From contig JAFTTJ010000006.1 of the NCBI GenBank assembly GCA_017466825.1, forward strand, positions 1 through 33,367: 33,367 nucleotides of DNA. The letters run 5' to 3'. How positions within the stretch are numbered: the stretch's first letter is position 1; every line of letters begins with the position of its first letter. A model generated the notes under the pieces. That model saw nothing but the letters and a program-made list of their open reading frames with translations. It did not search any database and was not told the origin of the DNA. The translations under genes were made by a program, and so were the position numbers. Below are positions 8,436-25,749 of the stretch, in pieces. This DNA comes from Clostridia bacterium (GTDB taxonomy: Bacteria > Bacillota > Clostridia > Christensenellales > Borkfalkiaceae).

Positions 8436-9224
8436 ATGGCGATAAACGCACCTTTCGTATACAACGCTCATATCGAAAGTCTAGCGGGTAAGGCGCGTAC
8501 AGCCACCGACTTGAAAACTTTGGAAACCGTTTGCGAAGATTTAAACGTCGCCGACGAAATTTATTTGGGAAAAGTAGACCTTTGGCTTGCAAAAATAGCC
8601 CTTAGCGCGGTTTACCGCACTCTTAAAAAGTTTCCTGCCATTAGGTCTAGGTTAAATTATTTCGGCACGCTAAACGGGTTTATTGAAAAGAAAGACACCA
8701 CTTTTATGGCGGTAAATCCCACGGCTAGCAAGATGCACCTTGAATATTTTAGGCAGGGCACTTTAGAAATTGCAAGGAACTGCCTTAACTCGTTTAGGGC
8801 GAACGGAATAGGACTTGCGTTTGCAGTCGGCGTTCCCCCCTTTTATATGAACGGCATTATAATAAACGGCAAGAGTTTGCATAAGCAAGAGATAATGCAA
8901 AATCTTGAGATTGGCGAAAGGGTAGGGCATAGCCCCAAGGGTTGCAATTCGGTAAAGTCGGTAATCGACCACGAAATAGGGCATTTACTTGACTACGCGC
9001 TCGATTTGAGCAATAACCGTGGGTTGCAAAAGTATATAAACGGTTTTTCGGTTGACGAAATGGGTAAAAACCTTTCGCTTTATAGCACGACGGGGGGAGT
9101 TATTTCCGTACCCGAAGTAATTGCCGAAGCCTACTCGGAATACTCTAACAATCCGTCGCCACGGCCGATAGCAAAGGCGATAGGCGAGTTTATCACGGCG
9201 AGATATAACGATAGATTTAATTAA
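8436..9224 (+). CDS. HEIGH zinc-metallopeptidase-like protein
   Basis: A 262-residue cytosolic protein with no signal peptide. VIDHEIGHLLD supplies a HExxH zinc motif (His179, Glu180, His183). PEVIAEAYSEY downstream supplies a likely third zinc ligand, Glu231, the gluzincin-like arrangement. The N-terminal 90 residues are helical and LNVADEIYLGKV-like repeats are not obvious. Similar HExxH domains occur in phage minor-head and ADP-ribosyltransferase-neighbourhood proteins, but no phage gene is nearby. It starts at ATG 8436 with an AGAGGGGG site. It is the first co-directional gene before the kinase cluster, 129 nt upstream, so it may be a protease of that system. The substrate is unknown. Confidence 0.7.
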   Translation: MAINAPFVYNAHIESLAGKARTATDLKTLETVCEDLNVADEIYLGKVDLWLAKIALSAVYRTLKKFPAIRSRLNYFGTLNGFIEKKDTTFMAVNPTASKMHLEYFRQGTLEIARNCLNSFRANGIGLAFAVGVPPFYMNGIIINGKSLHKQEIMQNLEIGERVGHSPKGCNSVKSVIDHEIGHLLDYALDLSNNRGLQKYINGFSVDEMGKNLSLYSTTGGVISVPEVIAEAYSEYSNNPSPRPIAKAIGEFITARYNDRFN

Positions 9225-9353: not shown

Positions 9354-12300
9354 ATGGACAACAACAACGAAAAAGCGAAAGCCTTATTATCCGAATATTT
9401 ATACGAGCAGTTTAAAACTGCGCTCGTAGGCGGTTTTGCAGACAGAATTGCGCTTGCAAACGAGTTTATCAATTGTTTTGACGGAGCAAGGTTTGCTGGA
9501 AAAGCCGTTAAAACAACGCCCTTACTTTCGGTCGACACGATTGAAATGATAAAGGTTGACGGCGGTGACGAAGATTCCGCCGAGTACACCTTTGAGTTTG
9601 CAAAAGAATACTCCGGCGACGAAAGGGAAAAGTTTACCAACTATTCTTTCGGCCCTGCAAGGCTATTTGAAAAGAAGAAACTTTTTGGAGTTCACCCAAC
9701 TACGGTCGGCGAAGTAATGCGCGAGTTTACCGAAGCGGACGTTTGCCAAATCTTGGCTAAAATCGCTTTTAATATCTGTTTTTGCGTGCATCCTTTTAAA
9801 GGGCTTAAATATTTTGGCAAACTCACCGTTAGCGAAGACGAAGAAAAAGAGTTTTTCAAAAAGGAATACAAGCACGTATTCGATTTAGAAGATAACCCCA
9901 ACCGTTTTTTAAACGGTTATCAAGAGAGCGCTTTTTACCTTTGGGGAGTTTTAAACGATAGCCAAAAGGACTTTATAAACAGGGCTTTATACGGTAAAAT
10001 TACCGCCTACGACGAGTTTTTTGAAGGTTGGAAGCAAAACTTTGCAATTTACAAGTCGGAGTGTAAAGCGCCGTGCGGTGAAATTATTCCCGCAATGGTC
10101 TTTAAGGATGAAACCGCCCTTTTATACACCGAAAGGTGGATAACCGTCAAGAGAATGTACTGTTATAGATGCAAAAATGTGATTGGCGATAAGTGTAAGG
10201 CTTGTAAGATTGACGCTAGCAAACAATACGCCGAATTTTTGACCTTAAAACTCAAAGTTGCAAAGATAAATCAAGACGGCGAAGAAGATAAAGATTTTGC
10301 TAAAGAAATAGTCGTTTGTGACAAAAAGCAAATTTCGCTCAACAGTTTAAACGGCGAAGAAAAGCACGTTTACGACTTTGAAATAATAATGTCGAAAAAG
10401 GCGAACGTTCTCGGCGCAAAGGTCTTGCTCACAGAGCCCGTAACGGCTATTCACGGCGCAAAAACCCGTGATTATAAGCAAGGCGAGATAATCGGTCTTC
10501 TTCCCGGTATGGTAATTAAAGTGGGGGATATAACGTTGACCGTTCCCGGCGAACCGCCCAAGCCCCCGCAACCCCAAAAACCCAAGGCAGAGCCCCCAAA
10601 ACCGACGGATACCGACGTTAAAACGGATACCGACGGCGGTGAAAGTCAAGAAAACCCCGAAAAAGCAACGGGTGATACCGAAGAAAAACAGGTTGAACAA
10701 CCCGAAGTAGCCCCAAGCGCGGAAGATAAAGCCGAAGTTAAGGCGGAAGTAAAACCCGAATCTAAGCCCGAAGTAAAACCCGCCCCCCCCAAGCAAAGAG
10801 CCGTAAAGGTAAAATCCATATTAGAAAAGCACGAAATCCCCGAAGAATTATTGGTCGTAGCAGACGGGCAGTTGTTTAGGGTAGACGCTCAATTAGGCGA
10901 TTACCGCGGATACTCGGTATACCGCTTAAACGGTGGCGAAAAGCATTACCGCCTAGTCGTAATCGACGGCGATTTCGCCCGTGACGCGCTCGTTAATTTA
11001 GAGAGCGTAATAAACTTTGATTTAAACGGAAACGGAGGGTTTTTAGCACCGCTTGCAATAGCCGACGGCGTTGGTTTTTGCAAGGGCAAAGTAGGATACG
11101 TAACCGAGCAAGTTGAAAATCTTTTACCGGCGGCGGTTATTTTAAACGGCAGAGCAAAACTTTCAAAAGCGAATATCGTAAGGTCGTTTAAGGATATTTT
11201 TGAAGTAGTAAAAAGGGTTCACGATAAGGGTTACGCGTTTAAAAATTTAAGTTTAAAAAACTTCTACGTAGTAGATAGAATCGGTAAGATTATCCTTGCC
11301 AACACCCATTACCTTTCAAGGGAAGACGCGCCTGTTTACGCCACCGAACTCGAATTTGCGCCCGACGAGATTGCTTGCTCTATGACTAAGCAAGACTGCA
11401 TTTCGGACGTGTACTCGATAGCCCAAATTTTCTTCCAAATTTTCGTTGGGGACAGCGATTTTTCAAGAGAAGATTATTTTGGAGTAAAGAGCGGAATAGG
11501 CTCGTTTTTCGGCTCGCTAATCGGCGCGAAAACCGAAAGGTGGAAGAGCGAAATGCCCGACTACGTAGCGGATATGCTTATAAAGACGTTTACTACGGGC
11601 GTTTGCGACCCGCAATATAAAAACTTTAATTCCGAAGAAAAAATTCAAGAGCAAAACAGAATTTTAAGAGATAGGCAACTTCGCCCTACGGCGGACGATT
11701 ACCGTCGCGCTTTGGATAGGTGGATATCGCAAGAATTCCCCCAAAGCGAGCGCCCGCAGGAAAAAGGCGAGTATAAAGTTACCGACGGGATGGGCTTAGT
11801 TTATACCGTAGGCGAAAAAACACGCCAAACGGATAGCGAAATCTGGTATAAAGTTACTCAAAAATCTAGTGGGAAAGAATTCGTTTTAAAATGCGAAAAA
11901 GCGACCGCCATAGCCTACTACAACAATTTGAAAGAAATGGTGGCAAAAGGTGCGCCGTCTAAAGCCTTCGAGTGGCCGATTTCGGTCGTTAAAATGAAAA
12001 ACGAAGTAGTCGGTAGAATAGTAGAAGTCGACGACGGTAGATTCTCGACTTTTGCGGATATAATTAGCGGAAAGGCGACTTTTGTAAGCGACGAAGTTTT
12101 AGTAAAGGCTCTTTTAAATTTGGCGACCGCGATTGACCGATTACACGCAAGCGGATATTCTTACCGCGATATAACCGACAAGACGGTTAAGTTCGATATT
12201 CAAACGGGCGACATTAAAATTGCGCACAGCGGTAGAATTGCTCCCGAAGGAATTGATTTTGGTATGGTAAGAAGCGCGTTGTTCGTTGCGCCCGAAGTCG

Positions 12301-12680
12301 CCATTAAGGAAAATAAGGCGGATAAGTATTCGGACAGATTTGCAATAGGCGTAATCGCGTTTGCATTATTGACGGGCTGCCACCCCTTCTTTGGTAAACT
12401 CTCGGTAAACGAAAACGGCGAAATCGTTTGCAAAAACAAGCCCGATTATAAGACTTTTAAAGAGTATATAGCCCTTAGTCAAATGGAAACGGTAGCCCTT
12501 TCGCCCACTTGGCAAAAAGTACCCGAAGTTATTAAAAAGACTTTTGAAAAGACTTTTACGGCAACTAGAACGGATGGTAGAAAAAAGGAGATTGAGTCAG
12601 ACCGAAGTCAAAGGTCAAGTGCCAACGACTGGCGTAAAAAACTTGAAAAATGGCTTAAAGAATTAAAGGAAAACAGATAG
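9354..12680 (+). CDS. Tandem degenerate-kinase signalling protein
   Basis: An 1108-residue cytosolic protein. Residues 1-265 are unrecognised. A Cys4 cluster follows (C270, C273, C281, C284), then a beta-rich stretch to about 395 with a faintly FHA-like end, and a Pro/Lys/Glu linker at about 398-482. Two kinase folds come next. In the first (about 483-795) the catalytic Asp is Asn631 (FKNLSLKN) and the DFG Asp is Asn650. In the second (about 800-1090) Lys846 and Asp939 (YRDITDK) remain, but the metal-binding Asp is His958 (AHSG). Both are therefore probably pseudokinases, acting as scaffolds or allosteric partners of the kinase encoded 15 nt downstream, which shares KGAP(x)nFxWP signatures. 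The start is odd: AAGGAGA (9324-9330) is 23 nt from the ATG. Confidence 0.8.
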   Translation: MDNNNEKAKALLSEYLYEQFKTALVGGFADRIALANEFINCFDGARFAGKAVKTTPLLSVDTIEMIKVDGGDEDSAEYTFEFAKEYSGDEREKFTNYSFGPARLFEKKKLFGVHPTTVGEVMREFTEADVCQILAKIAFNICFCVHPFKGLKYFGKLTVSEDEEKEFFKKEYKHVFDLEDNPNRFLNGYQESAFYLWGVLNDSQKDFINRALYGKITAYDEFFEGWKQNFAIYKSECKAPCGEIIPAMVFKDETALLYTERWITVKRMYCYRCKNVIGDKCKACKIDASKQYAEFLTLKLKVAKINQDGEEDKDFAKEIVVCDKKQISLNSLNGEEKHVYDFEIIMSKKANVLGAKVLLTEPVTAIHGAKTRDYKQGEIIGLLPGMVIKVGDITLTVPGEPPKPPQPQKPKAEPPKPTDTDVKTDTDGGESQENPEKATGDTEEKQVEQPEVAPSAEDKAEVKAEVKPESKPEVKPAPPKQRAVKVKSILEKHEIPEELLVVADGQLFRVDAQLGDYRGYSVYRLNGGEKHYRLVVIDGDFARDALVNLESVINFDLNGNGGFLAPLAIADGVGFCKGKVGYVTEQVENLLPAAVILNGRAKLSKANIVRSFKDIFEVVKRVHDKGYAFKNLSLKNFYVVDRIGKIILANTHYLSREDAPVYATELEFAPDEIACSMTKQDCISDVYSIAQIFFQIFVGDSDFSREDYFGVKSGIGSFFGSLIGAKTERWKSEMPDYVADMLIKTFTTGVCDPQYKNFNSEEKIQEQNRILRDRQLRPTADDYRRALDRWISQEFPQSERPQEKGEYKVTDGMGLVYTVGEKTRQTDSEIWYKVTQKSSGKEFVLKCEKATAIAYYNNLKEMVAKGAPSKAFEWPISVVKMKNEVVGRIVEVDDGRFSTFADIISGKATFVSDEVLVKALLNLATAIDRLHASGYSYRDITDKTVKFDIQTGDIKIAHSGRIAPEGIDFGMVRSALFVAPEVAIKENKADKYSDRFAIGVIAFALLTGCHPFFGKLSVNENGEIVCKNKPDYKTFKEYIALSQMETVALSPTWQKVPEVIKKTFEKTFTATRTDGRKKEIESDRSQRSSANDWRKKLEKWLKELKENR

Positions 12681-12695: not shown

Positions 12696-14039
12696 ATGGC
12701 AAAAACGATACGTTGTGAAAAAAAGATATACGAACTCGGCGCAAAACTCGGCGAAGGCGGACAAGGCGCGGTATATAAAGTAAAATGTTTGGAAGACGGA
12801 AAGAGTTACGCTTTAAAGGTTTACAAAAACGCTATGTCTACCGACTTTATTAAAAACTTGAGCGACAACATAGCAAAGGGAGCGCCCAATCCGTCATTTT
12901 TGTGGCCACTCGGCTTGACCGAACCGCTCGGACCTAAGAAAGATAGGTACGGATATTTGATGGACCTTTTCAATCCTGCATACTCGTCTTTCGTAAAAAT
13001 TATGAAGGGAAAAGTAAATTTCCCGTCAAAGGAAATGCAAATTGCAGCGCTTATCGGCCTTGTAGACGCCTTTGAAGTTTTACACGCTAAAGGTTATAGT
13101 TATCAAGACCTTAACGACGGCGGTATTAGAATTAACTGCGCTACGGGTGAAGTTTTGATTTGCGACAACGACAACGTAGCCCCCTACGGCGAAAACTTGG
13201 GAATACTCGGTAAGTTTAAGTACATGGCGCCCGAAGTTGCTATAAAGATGTTCCGCCCCGACAAGCATTCGGATAGGTTCTCTTTGGCAGTACTTTTATT
13301 CTTGCTTTTGACGCACGCTCACCCTTACGACGGCGTTCAAAGGCTAGCAGGACAACTTACCCCCGCCCTTCAACAAAAGGTATACGGCACAGAGCCCGTG
13401 TTTATCTTCCACCCGACGGACGCGTCCAACCGCCCTGATCCGCAAATGGATATAAACGCTATCAAGGCTTGGCCGACTCTTCCCCCGTTTATTCAAGACT
13501 TGTTCATCAAAACTTTCACTTCGGGTATGCCTAAAATCGGCATGAAGAGAGATAAGATTGAAATAGACCGTCAGCAAAGACCTAGCGAAAAAGAGTGGAG
13601 AGACGCTTTCCACCGTTGGCTCGATACGGTTGCCGCTTGTCCTAGTTGCGGAAAGGGTATTTGCGTTGAAGTTGAAAACAATCAAATTAAAGATATCAAA
13701 TGCCCCCATTGCGGAAAGAAAGTTAAGGTTTCCGTACCCGTGCTTATCATTAGGAGAAGGGGTAAAGTCATACGTACCGTCGTACTTGAAGACGGAAAGA
13801 CGGTTGCTAAAAGTTCAGTAACTAAAGAGCGTTCAAACGAGCCTGCGTTTATTATAAGAAGAAGTAAAAAGCGCGCCGACGTTTACGGCATTGAAAACTT
13901 GCTCCCCTATCAATGGAAGTGCGTACAGCAAGGCGCAAGCGATAGGTTGGTAAAAACCCATGAAGTAGTTGCGGCGTTAAACGGCGTAAACATTGAATTC
14001 GACTACGACTTTAGCGGTGAAATTTTATACAAATTGTAA
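12696..14039 (+). CDS. Ser/Thr protein kinase with C-terminal zinc ribbon
   Basis: A 447-residue kinase of the type found in TerY-P triads. The glycine loop GEGGQGAVY is at about 19-27, ATP-anchoring Lys41 in YALKVY, catalytic Asp138 in YQDLNDGG, metal-binding DND at 157-159 in ICDNDNV, and MAPEV at the activation-segment end. Active-site residues are kept, except that the catalytic-loop Asn is Gly143. A zinc ribbon follows (C315, C318, C336, C339), then a basic beta-rich C-terminal domain of about 100 residues. An AAGGAG site lies 15 nt after the tandem-pseudokinase gene, so the two are co-transcribed. It is likely the catalytic partner whose phosphorylation is reversed by the PP2C gene downstream. 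Targets are unknown. Confidence 0.88.
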   Translation: MAKTIRCEKKIYELGAKLGEGGQGAVYKVKCLEDGKSYALKVYKNAMSTDFIKNLSDNIAKGAPNPSFLWPLGLTEPLGPKKDRYGYLMDLFNPAYSSFVKIMKGKVNFPSKEMQIAALIGLVDAFEVLHAKGYSYQDLNDGGIRINCATGEVLICDNDNVAPYGENLGILGKFKYMAPEVAIKMFRPDKHSDRFSLAVLLFLLLTHAHPYDGVQRLAGQLTPALQQKVYGTEPVFIFHPTDASNRPDPQMDINAIKAWPTLPPFIQDLFIKTFTSGMPKIGMKRDKIEIDRQQRPSEKEWRDAFHRWLDTVAACPSCGKGICVEVENNQIKDIKCPHCGKKVKVSVPVLIIRRRGKVIRTVVLEDGKTVAKSSVTKERSNEPAFIIRRSKKRADVYGIENLLPYQWKCVQQGASDRLVKTHEVVAALNGVNIEFDYDFSGEILYKL

Positions 14040-14079: not shown

Positions 14080-14766
14080 ATGGCAGGAATTATAATACCT
14101 ATTATAGAAACTTCATCGGCTACTGCTGGGAGAATCATTTGCGAAGTTAACGACAAAGTAAAGCAACTAATAGATTGCCTTATTAAAATAGAAGAAGACA
14201 CAGGTGAAAACATATTTTTTTCTCCTATAATTTTTTCAGACGACGTAAAAACCGTTGGGTTAATAGACGAAAAACCGGTTAGCGTACAAGAGTTTGTATG
14301 GAGAGACTTAAAAAGCAACGGGGTGGCAAACTTTGGGGCGGCATTAAATTTTCTTCATGACAAACTCACTGTTGAAGAAAAAGGCGGTTGGATGAAAAGT
14401 TGTGGTGGCACAGCACCCATTATTATCCTTATTTCGAATGGTAAGCCTACAGATGATTATAAGTCGGAACTTGAAAAACTTAAAAAGCGCGGTTGGTTTA
14501 AAGCAGCGTTAAAATTTGCTGTAGGTATAGGGCAAGATATAGATAAGACCACTCTAGCCGACTTTACAACAAGCGAAGAGACTGTTTTAGATGCAAATAC
14601 AGGATTGGCGTGGGAGCAAATTGTGGGAGTGATTAAATATGCTATGCGACCAACCCCTAATTTTAGGCCAGAGCCTTGTAGTTGCTCAGACGATACAGTC
14701 GCTGAGCCTTCTTCATCAAGCGCCGATTTTACACTAATAATGGATGAAACGGACGACTTGTTTTAA
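14080..14766 (+). CDS. vWA-domain protein with degenerate MIDAS (TerY-like)
   Basis: A 228-residue single vWA domain, paralogous to the next gene. They share the near-identical LTVEEKGGWMK and DDYKSELEKLKKRGWF blocks. All three MIDAS loops are changed: DxSxS is ETSSA (10-14), the loop-2 Thr is Ala83, and the loop-3 Asp is Asn120 (SNGKPTDD). Divalent-metal binding is therefore doubtful. A Cys/Ser-rich linker leads to a C-terminal DETDDLF tail that is also present in the paralogue. Codon use is visibly more A/T-rich than its neighbours. Probably a protein-protein adaptor that has lost, or regulates, metal-dependent ligand binding. A GAGAGG site lies about 11 nt before the ATG. Confidence 0.85.
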   Translation: MAGIIIPIIETSSATAGRIICEVNDKVKQLIDCLIKIEEDTGENIFFSPIIFSDDVKTVGLIDEKPVSVQEFVWRDLKSNGVANFGAALNFLHDKLTVEEKGGWMKSCGGTAPIIILISNGKPTDDYKSELEKLKKRGWFKAALKFAVGIGQDIDKTTLADFTTSEETVLDANTGLAWEQIVGVIKYAMRPTPNFRPEPCSCSDDTVAEPSSSSADFTLIMDETDDLF

Positions 14767-14891: not shown

Positions 14892-15659
14892 ATGGTAGAA
14901 CTCGAAACCTTAGGTGGTGTAGCGCAAACTGACGTTATCGTCATACCCATTATCGACGTATCAGGCTCGATGTACGGCACTAAAATCGGACAAGTAAACG
15001 AAGCGATGGCAGAAGTTCCTTCTCAACTTGCAGAAATCAACGACGAATCGGTTGACTCAACCCTTCGTATTGCTCCTATGGAATTTTCAAGCGGAGCAAG
15101 ATGGTTTGCTTTAAAGAACGACAAGCCCGCTGAAGTAGAATCTTTCCGTTGGATTGATATGAAGGCTAGCGGTCTTACCGACCTTGGCGCAGCCTTCAAA
15201 CTTCTTAACGAAAAACTCACCGTTGAAGAAAAAGGCGGTTGGATGAAAGGCCGTGGTGGCGCTGCTCCCGTTCTTATTCTCATTTCGGACGGCGGTCCTA
15301 CCGACGACTATAAGTCGGAACTTGAAAAACTTAAAAAACGTGGTTGGTTTAGAGCCGCTTTAAAATTTGCAGTAGCAGTAGGCACAGACGCTGATAAAAA
15401 CGTTTTAGCAGAGTTTACTGGCAACCTTGAAGCCGTTATCGATACCGAAATGGTAAGAAACGAACTCTCTTCAATCGTTAAAGCCGTTATCGTTTCGGCA
15501 AGTAAAACCGCCAGCCAAACCGCATCCGCATCAAACGGCGGTCAACTTATCAAAGAAGTTACCGACGACGGTCCTGACGCTGACGCGCAAGCCCAAGAAG
15601 AAGCAATCGGCGCTGTTAAAGACGCTATTTCTATGGACGACACCGACGATTTATTCTAA
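14892..15659 (+). CDS. vWA-domain protein with intact MIDAS (TerY-like)
   Basis: A 255-residue cytosolic vWA protein. Its MIDAS is complete: DVSGS at 22-26, Thr96 in GLTDLGAAF and Asp133 in ISDGGPTDD, so it should bind Mg2+ or Mn2+ and a partner acidic side chain. It closely resembles TerY of tellurite-resistance-associated signalling modules. After the domain comes an Ala/Ser/Asp-rich linker of about 45 residues ending DDTDDLF, a tail shared with the degenerate paralogue. A strong TTGGAGG site precedes the ATG. The 125-nt gap upstream and 229-nt gap downstream both carry hairpins, so its expression may be uncoupled from the flanking genes. Confidence 0.9.
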   Translation: MVELETLGGVAQTDVIVIPIIDVSGSMYGTKIGQVNEAMAEVPSQLAEINDESVDSTLRIAPMEFSSGARWFALKNDKPAEVESFRWIDMKASGLTDLGAAFKLLNEKLTVEEKGGWMKGRGGAAPVLILISDGGPTDDYKSELEKLKKRGWFRAALKFAVAVGTDADKNVLAEFTGNLEAVIDTEMVRNELSSIVKAVIVSASKTASQTASASNGGQLIKEVTDDGPDADAQAQEEAIGAVKDAISMDDTDDLF

Positions 15660-15888: not shown

Positions 15889-16761
15889 ATGGAAAACAAC
15901 TTTTTTGCAGTTTCAATAATGGGCGCTAGCCATATTAAATCGGGCAAGCCCATGCAAGACTCTTCGCTCGCGTTTAAAGGCGACGGGTTTTGCATAGGCG
16001 TAGTTTGCGACGGACACGGAGCGGATAAGCATTTTAGAAGCGAGATAGGCTCTAAATTCGCCGCCGAAGTAACGGCGGAAAAGTTTAGCGAAATTGCAAA
16101 GCAGTTTCCTACTTGGGAGTTGCTTAAAAACAATTTAAAACAAGTTAGCCATAGGGTAAAACTTGCAATACTTGCAGATTGGCACGCTAAGATAGAGCAG
16201 TACACCAAGGAAAACCCCTTTACCGAAGACGAACTAAAAAAAGCGTCTAAATCGTTTGCCCAAAAGCGCTTGTATACGGTAGCTCAGCCTTACGGCACTA
16301 CTATTTTAGGCGCGCTCGTAACCGAAGAATATTACTTTGCGCTTATGATTGGCGACGGGGCAATGTTTAAAATTTTACCCGGCTTTAAAACCGAAATAGT
16401 AGTTTTCCCCGGCAAAAAGATTTACGACGACGAGCCCCACTCTGCAACCGATTCCCTTTGCGAAGACAATGCGTACAGCAGTATGTTTATCTGTTGTAAT
16501 CCTATCGAAAAGGAAGAGTACGGCGTGGCATTCGGCATGTGCTCAGACGGTATGAGCGAAGCCTTCGCAACCGACGAAGTTTTAATAAAAAAGGTCAATA
16601 ATTACTTTGCTTATTACGCTGAAGTCGGCATTGAAAAAGCAACTCAAGACATTACCGCCCAACTCAATAATCTCTCTGCGATAAGCCCGATGAAAGACGA
16701 TATTTCCTTGGCTTTTGCAACCAACCATTTAGAGATGTATAAAAGTTCGGACGGCGAATAA
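15889..16761 (+). CDS. PP2C-family Ser/Thr phosphatase
   Basis: A 290-residue soluble metal-dependent phosphatase. PP2C motifs appear in order: SIMGASHIKSGKPMQDS, VCDGHG with Asp41, PYGTTILGAL, MIGDG, MCSDGMSEAF with Asp220, and KDDISLAF with Asp270-Asp271. All metal-coordinating acids are present, so it should be active. It presumably removes phosphates placed by the kinase at 12696. Kinase, PP2C and vWA together form the TerY-P triad. An AAGGAG site precedes the ATG, and the zinc-ribbon gene follows after 27 nt. Confidence 0.92.
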   Translation: MENNFFAVSIMGASHIKSGKPMQDSSLAFKGDGFCIGVVCDGHGADKHFRSEIGSKFAAEVTAEKFSEIAKQFPTWELLKNNLKQVSHRVKLAILADWHAKIEQYTKENPFTEDELKKASKSFAQKRLYTVAQPYGTTILGALVTEEYYFALMIGDGAMFKILPGFKTEIVVFPGKKIYDDEPHSATDSLCEDNAYSSMFICCNPIEKEEYGVAFGMCSDGMSEAFATDEVLIKKVNNYFAYYAEVGIEKATQDITAQLNNLSAISPMKDDISLAFATNHLEMYKSSDGE

Positions 16762-16788: not shown

Positions 16789-17148
16789 ATGAACGATAGA
16801 CCAAACGCGCAAGTCGTAATGGCAAAATGCTCTAAAAAGCGTTTATCCTACGGCATGAGAGTAGAAGAAAAAGAACGCAAAACTTGGCACGTTACTTGGG
16901 CATTCCCCATCTCTGACAAACGCGCCCGCGCTGAAAAATACGAAAACACCAAAATCGAAGGTTCTTTCGTTTTAGACGATACTTACAAAGGTTGCCCCTA
17001 CTGCGGAATGTCGGGATTTTTCTCTTGCTATAAATGCGGTAAAATTTCTTGTTGGGACGGCGCTCAAACGGTAACTTGCGCTCATTGCGATACCGTTTCC
17101 GATATCGGCGGAACGATTTCTGAACTCGACGTCGGGGGAGATTTGTGA
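16789..17148 (+). CDS. Stand-alone TerY-C-like zinc-ribbon protein
   Basis: A 119-residue protein. The first 65 residues form a beta-rich region (KTWHVTWAFPI, EGSFVLDD). The rest is a Cys-rich metal-binding module: C69, C72, C80, C83, C88, C97 and C100 in CPYCG, CYKCG and CAHCD motifs. This matches the TerY-C zinc-binding domain that in many TerY proteins is fused to the vWA domain. Here it is separate, but its TGA overlaps the GTG start of the next vWA gene (GTGA), so the two are translationally coupled and probably form one complex. A GGAG site lies upstream. Confidence 0.8.
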   Translation: MNDRPNAQVVMAKCSKKRLSYGMRVEEKERKTWHVTWAFPISDKRARAEKYENTKIEGSFVLDDTYKGCPYCGMSGFFSCYKCGKISCWDGAQTVTCAHCDTVSDIGGTISELDVGGDL

Positions 17149-17663
17149 TTAAATATTTTATCGTCGTCGATTGCTCGGGTAGCGCCGTTTCAGACGATAC
17201 TTCAATGGTCGGTATGATAAACGACGTAACCAGAGATTTAATATCCGAAATAGACTCTTATAACGGTGTTGACGTAAGGGTTATTTGCTATGCAAACGAC
17301 GCAAAAGTTTACTGGGAGAGTTCAAACGGGCACGGCTTTTTAGATTTGCCCGAAACGGCGTTTGGCGAGCGCTCTAACCTTGGCAAAGCCTACGAACTCA
17401 TTGAAAAACTAGTAAAAACCGAAAAAACAGCCTTAAAGGACTGCGCAATCGCCCTTATTTCGGACGGCGAGTCCACCGACGACTATAAAAAAGCCCTTTC
17501 TTCTCTCGACGAAAAAGACGAGAGTTTTAGGGTTGCCATTTCGTTTGGCAACTACCATTACACGACCGAAAGACACGGAGTAAAAGACGACCGAGTTTTT
17601 ACCAAAGGCGTTGAAGATAGGGACGATTTTATCGAAAAGGCAGTTGAAATCCTTTCAAAATAA
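17145..17663 (+). CDS. Small vWA-domain protein
   Basis: A 172-residue minimal vWA domain starting at GTG 17145, which overlaps the previous stop and has a GGGGGAG site. MIDAS motifs: DCSGS at 9-13, a Ser in place of the loop-2 Thr in ERSNLGKAY, and ISDGESTDDYKKAL. Metal binding is plausible. It is more distant from the other two vWA proteins and lacks their DDLF tail. Coupling to the TerY-C-like ribbon gene suggests a split TerY. Confidence 0.88.
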   Translation: MIKYFIVVDCSGSAVSDDTSMVGMINDVTRDLISEIDSYNGVDVRVICYANDAKVYWESSNGHGFLDLPETAFGERSNLGKAYELIEKLVKTEKTALKDCAIALISDGESTDDYKKALSSLDEKDESFRVAISFGNYHYTTERHGVKDDRVFTKGVEDRDDFIEKAVEILSK

Positions 17664-17733: not shown

Positions 17734-20700
17734 ATGTTGACTACCGCAAAACAAATTGCAAAATATTTACAAGATTCGGTTTTGTTTGATTTTAACAAAG
17801 AAACCGTATCTTCGCTTTCGCAAATACAGTTTCCTAGAGACCCTAGCAAGGTGAATTTTTTCACCCTTACGGATAGGGACGCTTTTTGCGCCCTTTTGCA
17901 CGACTGTTTGTCTTACGACAACCAGTTGCAAGATATATTCGTAGACTTTTTTGATTCGGGGCTAGGTTTACATAGGTTTGCGTCGCCCGACGCGAGAAAA
18001 TCACCTAGAACGATAGTAACCTATTTTTTAAGCCAACCAAAATTCCAATACCACAAAAACGACGTTGCAAAAGTATATCTTGCGGTAAATACTTGGCTCG
18101 TCTTTTTCGGCGCGCAGGAAATTACGCCCGAGTGGGACGTTTGCCCGTTTTGCGGTGGCGCTATTAAAAGCGGAAAGTGCGTAAAGTGTAAAAAGGCTAA
18201 CGCCGAGTTTAAAAAGGCGTCCGAAGAACTCACCATTATCCTTGCCGACGAGCAGAGCGGTAAGGAAACCCCAACCCCTTCCTATTGGAAGGATATAGTC
18301 GACGGTTCGGAATTTTATCTCGAATATAAAGTTCAAATAGAACTTTTGCGCAAAGGTAGAAAAAACGAAGTTCTTTTAATCGCTGAAAAGGCTAAAAAGA
18401 CGGCGGTTGACAAGGCGGATAAACAACTCAATTTAATAAAGGGCGCGCTCGCCCTTGAAATGGCTAAAGCAGAGCCTAACTTAGAGCGGTTTTTAAAGGA
18501 AATTACGGATAGCGCCGACATAAAAGAAGCCTTAAAATTTGCCGACGACGGCTTTACTAAAAGGCTTGCCGAAGTAAAAGACCAAATTTCTAAAAAGCAA
18601 AAGGAAATTGAAGATAGGCAAAAGGCGGACTTAAAGGAAAAGGAAATTGAAGATACGGTTATGGAATTTTTGCGCCATTTATCGGCGCTTGAAAAGGATA
18701 TGACCGCCAACACGCGCCCCTTTAAAGACGTAAAGGAGACGTTTTTAAAGTTAGAGCAAAACTACACTAAATTAAACGGGTTTATTAAAAGCGGAGCAAA
18801 AAAATGCGACGGCGCTTTGCTCGAATCGGTAACGAGATACGAAAAGACGGTTCGCACCTTGGCTAGCGGTTTCATCTATACGACCGAAGAGAAGAATAAA
18901 CTCGACGAAAAACAGAAAAAACTTATTGAAACGGTAAACCTTATTCTCAACATGTTCAACGGCGTAAAGCCGATTGACGACAAGGGTAAGGATATAACCT
19001 TGCGGTTTAATACCGACGTAGAGTCTAACCACTCGTACGACGATTTTAGAATTAAGCGCAAGCAAGAGTATGAAGAAGTGGTAAAACCCGTCAAAAAAGC
19101 GCTTGCAAAACTTATTTCTGAAGAAAACGAACACAAAATGTCCGATTTTTCAAAGCAATCGGACGAACTTTTAAAAGATATTTCAAATCAAGATCCGTCG
19201 GGATACAAATCGGCAACCTTTGACGTAAGACTTAAAAATATAGAAGGCAACGCCTTTTACGCGTCGATAAGAAGCAACGGCGAGTATAAGCGCGCAATCA
19301 TAAAGATAAAAGAGAGCATACAAGCCCTTATCCAAAAGGAAAAAAAGTACACGGCGGAACGCCAAAAGGAAAGGGAAAACGCCGAAAAGCGCAAAAAAGG
19401 CATTATAATAACGGCAATCGTAACGGCTATAAGTTTAGTCGCCCTTTCGATAACCGCGCTAATTTTGGAAATCGCAGGCGTAACCCCGTTTTCGATAGCG
19501 TTTGCCCCCGTAATTCAAACCTTTGACGGCGTAAACGACGGCGGAGAAGTTACCATTACAGGCGTTAAGGGCGATAGCGCGATTGAAAAGAATTTGAAAA
19601 TTCCGTCTTCGGCAAGACCTAATTGGAGTTTTGGCGAAGGTAAAATAACGGCGATAGGCGAACACGCTTTTGAAAACTCTTCGGCGATAGAAACGGTAAT
19701 TTTACCCAGCACGGTCGAAAAAATCGAGAGCAAGGCTTTCGCTAATTGTCAAAATTTGCGCAGGGTAACCCTTTTGTCTACCTTGCCACCGCAAATAAGT
19801 AAAGACTCTTTCGAGTCGTCAAACGTTACCTTCTACGTGCCCGTAGACAACTACGAAGCCTACCTTCAAGACGAAGATTGGAGCAAGTTTAGCGACAGAA
19901 TTTTCCCCAATTTCGTCAGCGACGAAGTAAGCGTGTCCGTCCTTTTCAATTCGGACGGCGGCAGTAAGGTTGACGACGTTTTATCCCACCCCATAAACTC
20001 GGTATTGACGGCGTTGCCAACCCCCGCAAAATACGGTTATATCTTTATGGGTTGGTACTATCAAGCAGGCGAAGAAACCCTTAAATTTGAAGGGGGAAAG
20101 ACCTTGCTTACCGAGAGTTTAAAACTCACCGCAAAGTGGGATTTAGGCGCTTATAGGCTTACTTTTGACTATAACGGCGGTGAAGAAGCGGAAGAGAGCA
20201 AGGGCGTATATTATCAAGGAACTTACGGTTCTTTGCCCAACACAAATAAAAAAGGATATACCTTTGGCGGTTGGTTCGTCGACGGAAAAGCCATAACTGA
20301 AGACGACCTATTCACGGGCTCTAGCGACGTTTTAGCAATCGCTAGATGGACGCCGATAGCGTACAGAGTAATCTTCGTTTATAACGGCGGAGTAGAAACC
20401 ACGCATGAAAAGGCAGTCGATTACGAAACGGCTTACGGCGAACTGCCCCAACCCCAACAAACGGGCTTTATTTTCGACGGTTGGTATTTAGACGACGTTA
20501 AAATAACCCCCGACACGATTTGTCATAGCGATTACAATCATAAATTGATGGCAAAGTGGTCGCCCATAAGTTATACGGTTGCATATCATACCGAAGGCGG
20601 TTTTTACGACCTATCGGAAAGCGTTTGCTATTATTGCGAAAGTTACGATATATTCTCGCCCACCAAAGCGGGCTATACCTTTGAATATTGGGACTGCAAC

Positions 20701-23700
20701 GGCGTAAAATACTACGCAGGCGATAAACTTTGCAATCTGACTAGCGTAAACGGTGAAGTTATAGTGCTTACCGCCGTTTGGACGGCAAACGGCAACCTGC
20801 TCACCTTTGATAAAAACGGTGGCGTCGGCAGTATGCAACCTTTAAGCGTAAAGACGGGCGACTCGGTAACGCTTGCCGAAAACGGCTTTACAAAACTCGG
20901 CTATACCTTCTTGGGTTGGTCTACAACGCCCGGCGGTGAAGTCGAATACTACGACCAAGCGACCTTCGTAATGGGGGCAAACTCTACCTTCGTGCTCTAC
21001 GCAGTATGGCAGGCGGACGAACACGTCGCAAGATTTAACAAAGTCGTCGGTGGCAAAGTTGAAGAACAGGTCGTTAAAAATCTCGTTACCGACCAAGTCT
21101 TTACCTTTGAAAGCCTTTTCACTCGCGACGGTTACACCTTCGTCGGTTGGGCTAGACAAATGAATTCACTCAGCGCTGAGTACGGCGTTGGCGACACTTA
21201 TAAAACCCCTGCAAACGACCTTGTTTTCTACGCCGTATGGAAGGCTAACAAAAACGAGATTATATTTAGGAATAACGGCGCGAGCGGTGAAGAGTTCTCT
21301 CTTTACGGCAACACCGATTCGCTTTTGACCTTGCCAGCATGCGACTTTACTAAAGACGGATACACCTTTAAGGGTTGGTCTGCTAATAAAAACGCCGTCG
21401 AGCCCGAATATACGGCAGGCGGAAACTATAAAATAGCGACTCAAAGCGAGCAATTTTTATACGCAATTTGGCAGGCAAACGGCAACGAAATAAAACTAGT
21501 AAGGCTTATAAACGGCGAGGCTACGCAAACCCAAACGGTAGTAGTGCCGACGGATGAGATTTACGTTTTTGAATCTCTATATGAGCGCGACGGTTACGTG
21601 TTGCGTGGGTGGAGCTTAGAGCCCGACGGAGAAATAGCTTATAGAAATCATCAATCGCTTACCGTTACGCAAAGTATGATGGTATACTCGGTATGGGAAG
21701 CGCGCGCAAACGTACTACGTTTCGTAAGTGGACTAGGAACGGGTTACGACTACTATAAAAAAGTTTATAGCGACGAAGAGATAATCTTGCCCGAAAGCAA
21801 GTGGACTAAAACGGGTTATACCTTTATGGGTTATTCGGCTGAAGACGGAAAACCCGTTGCCGAGTACAAGGTGGGCGACACCTTTAAAACGGGCGTTGCA
21901 GACGAGTCCAATATCTACGCCGTATGGCAAAAGGACGTATATAACGTCGTTTACAACTTAAACGGCGGAGCAAACGACCACCTTAACCCGACCGAATATT
22001 CGGTTGACACGCCCGACGTGGTTTTTGCAAATCCCACTCGCGCAGGCTACGACTTTGTCGGTTGGTATTTAGAAGAAGACTTTATTACTCAAAGTCAAGG
22101 AATTGAGTTGGGAAGCGTAGGCGATAAGGTTTTCTATGCAAAATGGCAGGCAAAGGAAAATCAACTTACTTATAATAAATTGATTGGCGAAAACGTTGAA
22201 AGTAGCCAAGTCGTAACGGCTAGCACCGACCAAAATTTAACTTTAAACCATAGGTTTAGCCGTGAAGGTTACACTCTTTTAGGCTGGGCGACTTCTGCTA
22301 GCGGAACGCTCGTTTACACCGTCGATCAACAAATAGTAATGCCCGCTCAAAATCTCGATTTATATTCGGTATGGCAGGCAAACGAAAACGTCCTTACCCT
22401 TTTAGCAGAAGGCATTGGACAGGTTGAAATTAAGATAAACACCGACCAAACCAAAGTTTTACCCGTTAACAATTTTGAAAAACTCGGTTACGAATTTATA
22501 GGTTGGGCGGAGGCAAGCGACAAAAACGCGGTAGTTTATAGCGACGGCGACGAATATAAGATGGGCGTTCAGTTCCAAAATTATCTCTACGCCGTATGGG
22601 AGAGAATCGACTATGAAATATTCTACGCGCTAAACGGCGGTATAAACGACGCCCTTAACCCAAATATTTACACCATCGATAGTCCGCTTATTACTTTAAG
22701 CGAGCCCACGAGAGCAGGTTATACTTTCGTCGGTTGGTACACGGACGAAGGCTGTACTAATTTGAGTGGCCAAATCGAAAGCGGTAGCGTAGGCGCGCTA
22801 TACTTCTACGCGAAGTGGCAGGCAAACCAAAACTCGCTCAAATTTGATGCTAACGGCGGTCAAGGTCAGATGGACGATCTCGTTATTCCGACGGACGGCT
22901 CTGCGTACTTGCCTATGAATCAGTTTACTAAAACGGGTTATACCTTCGTCGGATGGAAGACTACGGCGGACGAAGACCAACTTGAAAGTTATTTAGACGG
23001 CGATATATACCAAATGGGCAAAGAGAGCGAATATACCCTTTACGCCGTTTGGGCGCTCAATAATTATCTTATCGTATACGAATTGTACGGCGGGGCAAAC
23101 GATTTATCCAACCCCGAAAGCTACACCCTTTTAAGCGGTGATATAACCCTTAATTCGCCCGTTAGAGAAGGTTATACCTTCGGCGGTTGGTATACCGATT
23201 CGGCGTTTACCAATCAAATAGCGGTTATCTCGTCGGGCAGTTACGGCGGTTTAGTTTTACACGCTAAGTGGACGGCAAATCAAAAGCAAATAATCTTTAA
23301 CGCAAACGGCGGTAGCGGTGAAATGCAACCTATAACCGCTTATACGGGGCAAACGGTTGCCCTTACGCCAAACGCCTTTGAAAAGACGGGATACGTCTTT
23401 ATGGGTTGGGCAAAAGAAAGCGGTGAGTCGGCGTCCTATCCCGACGGCGGTAATTACGAAGTCGGTTTAGGCGACGGATATACCCTTTACGCCGTATGGA
23501 AGATAATTACTTATCAGGTACGATTCGTATTAAACGGTGGCTCTTTCGGTCATTACGTTATGTCGCATTATCAATATTACACCTATTCTGAAATCGACGT
23601 AAATTTAAGCACGCCGACGCGTAACGGTTACGACTTTGACGGTTGGTACTTAACGCCTGCTTTAAGTGGCGAAAAAACGTTTACAATCCCTGCGTGTACG

Positions 23701-25749
23701 ACGGGCAATTACACGGTTTACGCAAAGTGGATAGCAAAAACCATTACCATTACTTACGATTCAAACGGCGCGGACGGCGAGATTACTCCGCGTGAAGTTG
23801 CCGTGGGTACGACGATAACCCTTGATAAAAACGTGCTTTCGCATCCGCTAAATTATAAATTTGCAGGTTGGGGAACTAACAAAAATAGCGCAAGTTACGG
23901 CGACGAAGCAAGGTTTACGGCAGGCGCTAGTTCGGTTACCCTATACGCAATTTGGGTGCAGACGGCTTTTGCTATAACCTATAATTTAGACGGCGGTACG
24001 AATAGCACGGCAAACCCGACGGGTTATAACACGGAAGGACTTACTATAAATCTAGTAAACCCCGTTAAAAAAGGTCATACTTTCTTGGGGTGGTATACAG
24101 AATCTGCCTATACTAATAAAATTACGCAAATAGAAACGGGCAGTACGGGCGATTACGAACTGCACGCGAAGTGGCTTGTAAACGATTATAAGGTTACGCT
24201 AGACGCAAACGGCGGTGATTGTTCGGTATACGATTTCAATCAAGCCTACGGCACGACTTACGACACGTTGGCGACTCTTACTATCGAAAAGACGGGCTAT
24301 ACCTTCTTGGGTTGGTATTTAGGCGGTAGCGAACTTATAACCGAGTCTTCTACTATGCAGGAAGATTACAGTCATACTTTAAGGGCAAAGTGGGAAGCCA
24401 ACGTATATACCGTTTCCTTCAATTTCAACGGCGGACAAAACGTCAGCGGTAGCCCGACGAGCGTACAAGTTGCCTACAACGAAAGATATTCTTTGCTTCC
24501 TACCCCGCAAAAGGTGGGCTACGACTTTAGCGGCTGGTTTTTAGACGAAGCGTTAATAACTACTTCGACCGTATTAAAGACTGCAAAAGACCATATTTTA
24601 GTCGCTAAGTATACGGCTCAACGATACGACGTTACCTTCAACTATAACGGCGCTACTACCACTTACGACGCTAAGATTACCGTTACTTACGGTCAACCCT
24701 ACGGCACGCTACCCGCTCTTACTAAGACCGGTCACGACGGCGTATGGCAATTTGGCGGGGTTACTATTACTGCGTCTACCGTAGTTACCCAAACGGCAAA
24801 CCATACCCTTACCGCAAAGTGGACGGTAAAAACTTACACTTTAAAAACGAGCGCAAGCAATTGCTCCTTTACGGTTTATAACGGTTCAAATAAGGCGATT
24901 TCTTCGGGTTCACAAGTCAAATTCGGTGAAAAATTGACCTATTCAACCCCGTCGGCAAATTCGGGCTTTCAAAACGCGAGATATACGTCGAGCAATCCAA
25001 GCACGATGCCTGCAAATAATCTTACGATATCCGCAACGGCGGACGCCATTCCGCCGAGCGGTAATTCGTGTTTTGTTCGCGGAACGCAAATCATGCTTGC
25101 AAACGGCGAGTGGCAGGCGGTTGAAAAACTTTCGGTAGGGGATGAAATTTTATCCTTTAATCACTTGACGGGCGAGTATGAAGTGACTGCAATAGGTTAT
25201 AAACTCCGCGCTTACGACAAGTGCAAGACCGTAACTTTGGACTTTGGCGGCGGTATTACACTCGGTATAGTCAACGGGCACGGACTTTTCGACTTGACTC
25301 TTTCAAGATACGTGCTCATCACTCCGCAAAATGCGTTAGAGTACGTGGGGCACGAGTTCGTATACGCTATCTATGACGGCGAAAAAACGGTAAATAAGGC
25401 GGTTACTCTACTTTCAGCGGAAGTTGACGAAAGGTATATTGAGCGTTACGACTTAGTAACCGAAGGCAACCTTAACCAAGTCGCAAACGGACTTTTGGTT
25501 TGCTCGGATACTTTAGTCGGCGCTTGTAACGTCTTTGATTTTGACGGCGTAAATTACGACCTAGAAAAAATGCAAGAAGATATTGTAGCCTACGGGGTGT
25601 TTATCTATGAAGAGTGGTCTGAATTCGTAAGCCGTGAAGAATTTGAAGCCTTTAACGGCGGATATTTTAAAATAGCAATAGCAAAAGGTCTTATGACGAC
25701 TGACGAACTCTATTCGATTATAAACGATTTTAGAGTTTGGGTAGGCTAA
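17734..25749 (+). CDS. Giant single-pass membrane protein: zinc ribbon, LRR, about 22 B-repeats, C-terminal Hint
   Basis: A 2671-residue protein. Residues 1-130 are unrecognised. A zinc ribbon (C137, C140, C149, C152) is followed by a charged helical, coiled-coil-rich region to about 550. One membrane helix (about 557-580) follows basic KRKKG, so the N-terminus should be inside and the rest outside. Next come a BspA-like leucine-rich segment (about 600-720, AIGEHAFENSSAIETV) and about 22 InlB/Flg_new-type B-repeats (about 735-2362) marked by GYTFxGW; the last is degenerate. Residues 2446-2590 resemble a Hint autoprocessing domain: Cys2446 in NSCFVRGTQI, NGHGLF with His2516, and YDLVTEGNLNQVANGLLV. 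A final 81-residue domain has no known match. The TxxH Thr is Val2513 and the terminal HN is absent. It closes the kinase/vWA/PP2C cluster and is a likely client of it. Confidence 0.9.
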   Translation: MLTTAKQIAKYLQDSVLFDFNKETVSSLSQIQFPRDPSKVNFFTLTDRDAFCALLHDCLSYDNQLQDIFVDFFDSGLGLHRFASPDARKSPRTIVTYFLSQPKFQYHKNDVAKVYLAVNTWLVFFGAQEITPEWDVCPFCGGAIKSGKCVKCKKANAEFKKASEELTIILADEQSGKETPTPSYWKDIVDGSEFYLEYKVQIELLRKGRKNEVLLIAEKAKKTAVDKADKQLNLIKGALALEMAKAEPNLERFLKEITDSADIKEALKFADDGFTKRLAEVKDQISKKQKEIEDRQKADLKEKEIEDTVMEFLRHLSALEKDMTANTRPFKDVKETFLKLEQNYTKLNGFIKSGAKKCDGALLESVTRYEKTVRTLASGFIYTTEEKNKLDEKQKKLIETVNLILNMFNGVKPIDDKGKDITLRFNTDVESNHSYDDFRIKRKQEYEEVVKPVKKALAKLISEENEHKMSDFSKQSDELLKDISNQDPSGYKSATFDVRLKNIEGNAFYASIRSNGEYKRAIIKIKESIQALIQKEKKYTAERQKERENAEKRKKGIIITAIVTAISLVALSITALILEIAGVTPFSIAFAPVIQTFDGVNDGGEVTITGVKGDSAIEKNLKIPSSARPNWSFGEGKITAIGEHAFENSSAIETVILPSTVEKIESKAFANCQNLRRVTLLSTLPPQISKDSFESSNVTFYVPVDNYEAYLQDEDWSKFSDRIFPNFVSDEVSVSVLFNSDGGSKVDDVLSHPINSVLTALPTPAKYGYIFMGWYYQAGEETLKFEGGKTLLTESLKLTAKWDLGAYRLTFDYNGGEEAEESKGVYYQGTYGSLPNTNKKGYTFGGWFVDGKAITEDDLFTGSSDVLAIARWTPIAYRVIFVYNGGVETTHEKAVDYETAYGELPQPQQTGFIFDGWYLDDVKITPDTICHSDYNHKLMAKWSPISYTVAYHTEGGFYDLSESVCYYCESYDIFSPTKAGYTFEYWDCNGVKYYAGDKLCNLTSVNGEVIVLTAVWTANGNLLTFDKNGGVGSMQPLSVKTGDSVTLAENGFTKLGYTFLGWSTTPGGEVEYYDQATFVMGANSTFVLYAVWQADEHVARFNKVVGGKVEEQVVKNLVTDQVFTFESLFTRDGYTFVGWARQMNSLSAEYGVGDTYKTPANDLVFYAVWKANKNEIIFRNNGASGEEFSLYGNTDSLLTLPACDFTKDGYTFKGWSANKNAVEPEYTAGGNYKIATQSEQFLYAIWQANGNEIKLVRLINGEATQTQTVVVPTDEIYVFESLYERDGYVLRGWSLEPDGEIAYRNHQSLTVTQSMMVYSVWEARANVLRFVSGLGTGYDYYKKVYSDEEIILPESKWTKTGYTFMGYSAEDGKPVAEYKVGDTFKTGVADESNIYAVWQKDVYNVVYNLNGGANDHLNPTEYSVDTPDVVFANPTRAGYDFVGWYLEEDFITQSQGIELGSVGDKVFYAKWQAKENQLTYNKLIGENVESSQVVTASTDQNLTLNHRFSREGYTLLGWATSASGTLVYTVDQQIVMPAQNLDLYSVWQANENVLTLLAEGIGQVEIKINTDQTKVLPVNNFEKLGYEFIGWAEASDKNAVVYSDGDEYKMGVQFQNYLYAVWERIDYEIFYALNGGINDALNPNIYTIDSPLITLSEPTRAGYTFVGWYTDEGCTNLSGQIESGSVGALYFYAKWQANQNSLKFDANGGQGQMDDLVIPTDGSAYLPMNQFTKTGYTFVGWKTTADEDQLESYLDGDIYQMGKESEYTLYAVWALNNYLIVYELYGGANDLSNPESYTLLSGDITLNSPVREGYTFGGWYTDSAFTNQIAVISSGSYGGLVLHAKWTANQKQIIFNANGGSGEMQPITAYTGQTVALTPNAFEKTGYVFMGWAKESGESASYPDGGNYEVGLGDGYTLYAVWKIITYQVRFVLNGGSFGHYVMSHYQYYTYSEIDVNLSTPTRNGYDFDGWYLTPALSGEKTFTIPACTTGNYTVYAKWIAKTITITYDSNGADGEITPREVAVGTTITLDKNVLSHPLNYKFAGWGTNKNSASYGDEARFTAGASSVTLYAIWVQTAFAITYNLDGGTNSTANPTGYNTEGLTINLVNPVKKGHTFLGWYTESAYTNKITQIETGSTGDYELHAKWLVNDYKVTLDANGGDCSVYDFNQAYGTTYDTLATLTIEKTGYTFLGWYLGGSELITESSTMQEDYSHTLRAKWEANVYTVSFNFNGGQNVSGSPTSVQVAYNERYSLLPTPQKVGYDFSGWFLDEALITTSTVLKTAKDHILVAKYTAQRYDVTFNYNGATTTYDAKITVTYGQPYGTLPALTKTGHDGVWQFGGVTITASTVVTQTANHTLTAKWTVKTYTLKTSASNCSFTVYNGSNKAISSGSQVKFGEKLTYSTPSANSGFQNARYTSSNPSTMPANNLTISATADAIPPSGNSCFVRGTQIMLANGEWQAVEKLSVGDEILSFNHLTGEYEVTAIGYKLRAYDKCKTVTLDFGGGITLGIVNGHGLFDLTLSRYVLITPQNALEYVGHEFVYAIYDGEKTVNKAVTLLSAEVDERYIERYDLVTEGNLNQVANGLLVCSDTLVGACNVFDFDGVNYDLEKMQEDIVAYGVFIYEEWSEFVSREEFEAFNGGYFKIAIAKGLMTTDELYSIINDFRVWVG
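19936..24830 (+). repeat. Array of about 22 B-repeat (Flg_new) units
   Basis: Each unit is about 74 codons, with a strand ending in NGG or equivalent, then GYTFxGWxxx and YAKW or YAVW. I count 21 clear GYxFxGW-like motifs plus one degenerate unit (GHDGVWQFGG). DNA-level similarity is moderate, so the array is old rather than freshly amplified. Such repeats form elongated ubiquitin-like stalks in surface proteins. Confidence 0.88.

What the first reader, a model, noticed from the sequence alone, without database searches (positions are those of the whole stretch)
8436..25749. Expanded TerY-P-like phospho-signalling cluster wired to a giant trans-envelope protein with a Hint domain
Seen: co-directional genes for tandem pseudokinases, an active-looking kinase with zinc ribbon, two vWA paralogues, PP2C, a TerY-C-like ribbon overlapping a third vWA, then a 2671-residue single-pass protein with about 22 B-repeats and a C-terminal Hint domain, with a HExxH protein just upstream. 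Known: kinase, PP2C and TerY vWA form the TerY-P triad described near tellurite-resistance genes. Inference: the triad controls or reads the cytosolic zinc-ribbon/coiled-coil part of the giant protein, making a phosphorylation-gated surface arm. I know of no described system with this membership.
Basis: partly seen in the sequence, partly recalled or inferred. Interest (0 to 1): 0.9.

Follow-up and report, generated by a model that had tools for sequence, protein, structure and literature searches.

The report
Phospho-switch operon with giant surface protein
A bacterium carries a known type of kinase-phosphatase switch, elsewhere linked to phage defence, in one gene block with a giant membrane-spanning protein and a predicted metalloprotease, which suggests that such switches can be coupled to sensors that face outward.

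Summary
At 8436-25749 nine co-directional genes encode an HExxH protein, a tandem kinase-like protein, a kinase with zinc ribbon, two vWA proteins, PP2C, TerY_C, a third vWA and a 2671-residue protein with a TM segment, LRR_5, 22 B-repeat stretches and a Hint domain; a terminator-like hairpin follows. The triad is TerY-P, a known switch with reported anti-phage activity. The giant's N-terminal part is in 2 of 151 family genomes, both times last in nearly the same operon. Close triads usually carry proteins sharing an N-terminal 'client' domain that reached no Pfam cut-off: 11 of 14, including a Prevotella and a Methylomonas plasmid. The two giants rank 1 and 3 of 446 other proteins as divergent members: moderate support. 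HExxH relatives are in 5 of 190 order genomes, each beside a kinase and vWA genes. Best reading: an expanded TerY-P conflict module whose giant is an envelope-spanning client, most likely a sensor, with the HExxH protein as candidate effector. Phosphorylation, direction of signalling and defence are untested.

The parts
8350..8378 (+). promoter-like site before the first gene (10 of 12 matches; weak evidence)
   Evidence: 22 sites found in the region, 14.5 in shuffles
8436..9224 (+). HExxH protein, 262 aa, candidate zinc metallopeptidase effector (activity untested)
   Evidence: (phrog_324 C-terminus 1e-11)
9354..12680 (+). 1108-aa protein with two kinase-like halves (about residues 505-795 and 805-1105), pseudokinase by reading; Pro-rich linker
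12696..14039 (+). Ser/Thr kinase with C-terminal zinc ribbon and beta-rich tail; TerY-P kinase
14080..14766 (+). vWA protein 1, degenerate MIDAS (reading)
14892..15659 (+). vWA protein 2, intact MIDAS (reading)
15889..16761 (+). PP2C phosphatase, metal-binding Asp residues kept
16789..17148 (+). TerY_C metal-binding protein
17145..17663 (+). vWA protein 3, overlaps TerY_C gene by 4 bases
17734..25749 (+). giant 2671-aa envelope-spanning protein
17863..18132 (+). giant residues 44-133: divergent client-domain-like region (moderate support)
18142..18189 (+). giant residues 137-152: four-Cys zinc ribbon, also in the G042 giant
18259..19368 (+). giant residues 176-545: charged, presumably helical cytosolic region (inferred from composition, 38% K/R/E/D)
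19402..19458 (+). giant residues 557-575: transmembrane segment, N-in/C-out by charge rule
19645..19827 (+). giant residues 638-698: LRR_5 (BspA type)
19966..25053 (+). Listeria-Bacteroides (B) repeats, 22 stretches; outer limits approximate
25069..25509 (+). Hint domain, residues 2446-2592; first Cys and later His kept, C-terminal Asn absent (reading)
25510..25746 (+). C-terminal tail shared with other large Hint proteins of the family
25792..25827 (+). terminator-like hairpin closing the block

Best explanation
This is an expanded, accessory TerY-P phospho-signalling module, probably for conflict with phages or rivals. The kinase, PP2C, vWA proteins and TerY_C form the switch; the pseudokinase is a scaffold. 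The giant is an envelope-spanning client: a cytosolic adaptor-like domain, zinc ribbon and helical region couple it to the switch, one TM helix crosses the membrane, and LRR_5 plus B-repeats reach out. The Hint domain probably self-processes or anchors the outer end. Binding or damage outside most likely alters the cytosolic part, the kinase/phosphatase balance shifts, and the HExxH protein, freed or activated, acts as effector. Shown: gene content, order, conservation in one relative, domain architecture, linkage of the client domain and of the HExxH family to kinase/vWA clusters. Inferred: topology, sensor role, direction, protease activity, defence function.
For: Content matches TerY-P (definition in passages of PMC11090510; activity against T7-like phages in a passage of PMC7699616; same gene types on annotated Prevotella and Klebsiella plasmids). 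The giant's N-terminus is in 2 of 151 family genomes and in both ends the same operon. A client domain is in 11 of 14 close triads and 0 of 11 clusters with a more distant kinase. In 13 genomes with triad-type kinases it gave 12 hits in 7 genomes, 11 of the 12 on the triad contig, against 0 of 200 order genomes. Its partners include LRR_5, DUF6273, FGE-sulfatase and Sel1. Giant residues 44-133 align with it in register; G042 giant rank 1 and window giant rank 3 of 446; two-giant profile 27.4 against at most 15.5 in 100 column shuffles. HExxH relatives: 5 of 190 genomes, each beside a kinase and vWA genes. No gene of the cluster lies beside S6-SSB-S18 in the 10 genus stretches fetched.
Against: Only one relative has the full cluster. 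The client-domain call for the giants is below usual significance: hhalign probability 44% for the two-giant profile and 10% for the window giant alone; hmmsearch does not pass its threshold for either giant, and the genome searches with the domain found it in neither the window genome nor G042. The seed members were first grouped by eye. PADLOC gives only generic kinase models, nothing TerY-P-specific. B-repeats and LRR_5 are common on surface proteins, so the ectodomain alone does not prove sensing.
Confidence: 0.45

Rival explanations
1. Inside-out control: the switch phosphorylates the giant's cytosolic part and so controls display or adhesion of the surface arm; the giant is output, not sensor.
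For: The same co-occurrence data; some client-domain proteins look like outputs (helicase-like by reading; FtsK as annotated, its client domain by reading).
Against: Several client proteins carry sensor-like C-termini, LRR_5 and FGE-sulfatase; CLec folds, FGE among them, are proposed as antigen sensors in other conflict systems (PMC10907252, passages).
Confidence: 0.22
2. Envelope or metal-stress response: the module senses envelope damage or metal ions, as hypothesised for Ter systems, and the giant is a structural envelope part whose state is monitored; phages are not the target.
For: TerY_C and zinc ribbons; a metal-sensing role of TerY-P is hypothesised (PMC11090510 passage); L018 shows a triad beside TerD-like genes (by reading), C-C_Bond_Lyase and StiP.
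Against: No Ter biosynthetic gene was named by Pfam among the window ORFs scanned; the block is rare and accessory; an AbiL-like pair lies in the right flank.
Confidence: 0.18
3. Ordinary surface adhesin that happens to share an operon with a TerY-P triad, without functional coupling.
For: B-repeat, LRR_5 and Hint-tail modules also occur in large proteins of the family away from triads.
Against: The giant's N-terminal part keeps its place in the operon at 33% identity in another genus and was not found without the triad in 151 family genomes; the two giants resemble the triad-linked client domain.
Confidence: 0.12

Closest known systems
TerY-P triad (tellurite-associated; anti-phage system of Gao et al. 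2020, seen only through passages of PMC7699616 and PMC11090510)
   Same: kinase with C-terminal zinc ribbon, PP2C, TerY-like vWA, TerY_C; vWA duplicated, one MIDAS intact and one degenerate, as described for CoCoNuT-linked triads
   Different: adds a pseudokinase, HExxH protein, third vWA and a 2671-aa envelope protein; the stand-alone anti-phage TerY-P-like modules have an OB-fold in place of the ribbon
CoCoNuT type II / III-A systems with TerY-P (PMC11090510, passages)
   Same: TerY-P triad attached to a larger conflict system; vWA duplication
   Different: no McrB-type GTPase, helicase or HEPN nuclease among the Pfam hits of the block
GAP1-N2 GTPase systems with kinase-zinc ribbon, PP2C and vWA (PMC7159879, passages)
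   Same: same three-gene phospho-module with a beta-rich domain on the kinase, and use of small helical adaptor domains in related systems
   Different: no GTPase in the block; the client-domain proteins scanned matched no EAD model in Pfam
Hedgehog-type / bacterial intein-like Hint domains
   Same: first Cys and conserved His; profile matches 1at0 and 2lwy
   Different: C-terminal Asn absent in the window giant; sits at the end of a B-repeat protein

Membership tests
TerY-P triad | Ser/Thr kinase fused at its C-terminus to a zinc ribbon | tested here: met
   Pkinase 1e-13 and CxxC...CxxC; Lys41, Asp138, Asp157 and Asp159 invariant in 10 of 10 aligned kinases
TerY-P triad | PP2C phosphatase beside it | tested here: met
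   PP2C_2 6.2e-26
TerY-P triad | TerY-like vWA (and TerY_C) | tested here: met
   VWA in three genes, TerY_C 1.4e-7 above cut-off
TerY-P triad | phosphorylation switch or anti-phage activity | not testable with these tools
   needs experiment
TerY-P client domain (defined in this work) | helical N-terminal domain with an invariant Asp, in a protein beside a triad | tested here: inconclusive
   giants rank 1 and 3 of 446 and keep the Asp; hmmsearch stays below threshold
Hint domain | N-terminal Cys and conserved His of the Hint fold | tested here: met
   Pfam itself below cut-off
Splicing intein | C-terminal Asn followed by a nucleophile | tested here: not met
   window giant reads LLVCSD there (by reading); so cleavage or ligation is likelier than splicing
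CoCoNuT | McrB-type GTPase and coiled-coil nucleases | tested here: not met
   no such Pfam match in the block
VMAP/MoxR ternary conflict system | MoxR ATPase | tested here: not met
   no such Pfam match in the block
HExxH metallopeptidase | HExxH with downstream Glu | tested here: met
   kept in window and G042 and HExxH in three further relatives; activity not testable here

The most novel reading that the evidence does not exclude
TerY-P switches are hubs into which a so far unnamed adaptor domain plugs interchangeable sensors and effectors in at least three phyla, and in this lineage the plug has become the cytosolic head of a 2671-residue trans-envelope receptor that signals through kinase, phosphatase and vWA proteins to a phage-related zinc protease: a receptor-kinase-like bacterial immune pathway that reaches outside the cell.
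Probability: 0.3. Interest if true: 0.85.

Novelty: new variant of a known kind. Interest (0 to 1): 0.62.

Why it matters
If right, it ties a known intracellular phospho-switch with reported defence function to the cell surface. I saw no such case in the listings of six paper searches, which do not cover the two founding papers. The client domain gives a handle for asking what TerY-P triads act on, for which only hypotheses (metal sensing, nucleic-acid binding) appear in the passages read. The pairing of an HExxH protein with two different kinase/vWA cluster types offers a testable effector.

Tried and rejected
Tried without result: genome-contig scan with PP2C; viral contigs with the kinase and the giant N-terminus; plasmids with the giant N-terminus; phages with the HExxH protein; solved structures for the HExxH profile. 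Four weak giant-N-terminus hits in order genomes (E 3e-5 to 8e-4) cover only model positions 525-606, around the TM stretch, and I reject them. The first client-domain comparisons were weak (in one search the window and G042 giants ranked 3 and 11 of 382 non-training proteins); with more members they ranked 4 and 1 of 414, 7 and 5 of 451 (the top four being true members) and 3 and 1 of 446. The window giant alone never passed 10% probability. Considered and rejected: CoCoNuT, MoxR/VMAP ternary system, splicing intein, chance neighbourhood. The G150 cluster (L011/L079: vWA, PP2C, kinase, B-repeat protein with HTH N-terminus) is not counted as the same system: its kinase is distant (1e-11) and the N-terminus differs.

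Rows and cautions on the counts. One search examined 26 stretches, which are 25 clusters because L010 and L092 are one (G001). Left out of it: L045 (kinase at a contig end), the L046 triad of G452 (kinase 2e-70; G452 gave no client-domain hit), L020 and L021; L017 is the same contig as L008. L047 was kept although its contig ends just after the kinase. The kinase model was built from five of the 14 close clusters, so their E-values are flattered. The first six client-domain members were grouped by eye, and 10 of the 11 positive clusters supplied sequence to the final profile; L041 did not, but is close to L040. Found before being added to the profile: L043/L094, L074 and L075, two L092 proteins and L093, three of four L116 proteins (2.5e-6 to 8e-6) and five L118 proteins. 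The fourth L116 protein, FtsK, scored only 0.37 and was added by reading. An earlier count said 0 of 12 weak clusters; the table gives 0 of 11. Of the three other HExxH contexts, Pfam names the kinase in all three, vWA above cut-off in L125, below cut-off in L126, and in L127 the vWA is a motif reading; PP2C is just below cut-off in L127 and my reading in L125 and L126. The G042 TerY_C-like protein is a BLAST match (9e-12); Pfam did not name it.

Full report
What is there. The window is contig C29 of a 1.65-Mb assembly in 39 contigs. Between 8436 and 25749 nine genes run in one direction with gaps of 15 to 229 bases and one 4-base overlap, and a 14-pair terminator-like hairpin follows the last stop. 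Pfam gives Pkinase, VWA in three genes, PP2C_2, TerY_C, LRR_5 and 22 stretches of the Listeria-Bacteroides repeat. The kinase keeps Lys41, Asp138, Asp157 and Asp159 in 10 of 10 aligned relatives, so it looks active. The 1108-residue protein has two kinase-like halves that lack catalytic residues by my reading (homology). One vWA of the first pair has an intact MIDAS and the other does not (reading), as a paper reports for duplicated vWA genes of CoCoNuT-linked triads (passage of PMC11090510).

The giant. It has a cytosolic part of about 550 residues with a four-Cys ribbon and a charged region, a TM segment with K/R on the N side only (a weaker hydrophobic stretch follows directly), one LRR_5 region, 22 B-repeat stretches and a C-terminal Hint domain. 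The Hint call rests on the two-giant profile against solved structures and on Pfam Hint in the G042 giant, slightly under the cut-off. The first Cys and a later His are kept; the C-terminal Asn is not. So cleavage or ligation is likelier than splicing (inference). A search of 61 relatives found the Hint and tail in 6 genomes, with a second copy in the window's own genome. In the six stretches fetched around the copies other than the giant, none shows a kinase, PP2C or vWA hit; one gene (L069) is cut by its contig and one contig (L070) is short. Five of these six proteins have signal-like N-termini by eye. The module thus looks like a general outside-facing end, which supports the topology.

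Conservation. The giant's first 599 residues have a relative in 1 further genome of 151 in the family. That genome, G042 (same contig as CANQMQ010000010.1 by length and position), has HExxH, TerY_C-like, pseudokinase, kinase, two vWA, PP2C, third vWA and giant in a row. Two differences: the TerY_C-like gene stands second, and the vWA with intact MIDAS comes first of the pair. Identities run from 26% (pseudokinase) and 30% (giant) to 63% (kinase). Neighbours differ: a ClpC-like gene upstream in G042 (by reading), S6-SSB-S18 in the window. In 10 stretches fetched around SSB in other members of the genus no gene of the block was matched; all three of S6, SSB and S18 were recognised in 8 of the 10, and some stretches reach only 2-4 kb past them. 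So the block is an accessory unit, rare but kept together. None was found in plasmids or viral contigs with the giant N-terminus.

A client domain of TerY-P triads. Kinase searches gave 16 of 396 order genomes and 5 of 321 class genomes at 1e-20, the window's own included. Near the close triads lie proteins with unrelated C-termini and one shared N-terminal domain of about 100 residues: LRR_5 (L018, L092), DUF6273 (L010), helicase-like (L040-L042, by reading), Sel1 (L118 by Pfam; L075 by reading), FGE-sulfatase (L116), TM proteins (L074, L093, L116 by reading). No Pfam model reached its cut-off over the domain in the members scanned. In one search it is in 11 of 14 clusters with a close kinase (1e-100 or better) and 0 of 11 with a distant one. 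In 13 genomes with triad-type kinases there were 12 hits in 7 genomes, 11 on the triad contig, the positive control for the empty search of 200 order genomes. The three close triads without it are the window, G042 and L044. In the first two a giant stands at that place. Profile comparison aligns giant residues 44-132 with nearly the whole domain, with the invariant Asp kept. The giants rank 1 (G042) and 3 (window) of 446 non-member proteins, and the two-giant profile scores 27.4 against at most 15.5 in 100 column shuffles. This is moderate support: probability is 44% for the pair and 10% for the window giant alone, and hmmsearch stays below threshold.

The HExxH protein. Relatives are in 5 of 190 order genomes, window and G042 included; the other three lie beside a kinase (Pfam) and vWA genes (Pfam in one, weak in one, motif in one), with a PP2C-like neighbour that Pfam names only in one, just below cut-off. 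Its residues 138-260 resemble the end of a phage head-morphogenesis family (1e-11). A metallopeptidase effector under phospho-control is the simplest reading; activity is untested.

Mechanism. Known for other members: TerY-P is a vWA/phosphatase/kinase system reported to act against T7-like phages (passage of PMC7699616; the primary paper is not held). Shown here: membership, operon layout, conservation, domain order. Inferred: the giant senses outside, its cytosolic part feeds the switch, the pseudokinase holds the complex, and the HExxH protein is the effector. The inside-out reading and an envelope or metal-stress role remain open. The right flank holds an AbiLi-like gene and a serine recombinase, which fits a defence neighbourhood but proves nothing.

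Novelty. TerY-P is known. In the listings of six paper searches I saw no paper on TerY-P with a B-repeat/Hint surface protein or on this client domain; the founding papers could not be read, so earlier notice cannot be excluded. I class it as a new variant of a known kind.

Noticed in passing
window 30375-32469 (-): AAA_21 ATPase with AbiLi match (PADLOC 2.9e-27) overlapping a 252-aa gene with a TOPRIM-like start (by eye, no family hit): a likely AbiL-type anti-phage pair in a low-GC stretch (about 30%).
   Followed up: partly
window 29184-30212 (-): Serine recombinase next to the AbiL-like pair; possible edge of a mobile element.
   Followed up: no
window 2-5548 (+): 1848-residue open frame of repeated acidic units with no Pfam family; runs off the contig start.
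   Followed up: no
window 25871-27076 (+): Y_phosphatase3 protein with lipoprotein-like N-terminus (by eye) after the terminator-like hairpin; a short partial match lies in the G035 stretch past S6-SSB-S18 (L107), so probably not part of the cluster.
   Followed up: partly
L092 and L010 (G001:C146), same genus: A different TerY-P triad with four client-domain proteins (LRR_5, Cys-rich repeat, two DUF6273-type) and a transglutaminase-like gene (by reading).
   Followed up: partly
L050-L054: Distant kinase/vWA clusters followed by a protein of about 1560-1610 residues, perhaps a helicase by analogy with L020 (by eye): maybe a separate defence system.
   Followed up: no
L118 (Methylomonas plasmid) 14882-19418: Five tandem genes with near-identical client domains; two start like ClpX and Clp-N proteins (by eye), as if the domain had been copied onto host proteins.
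   Followed up: no
L078 13600-19323 (G452:C10): 1907-aa protein with 13 LRR_5 stretches between two different kinase/PP2C/vWA clusters; no client domain found.
   Followed up: no
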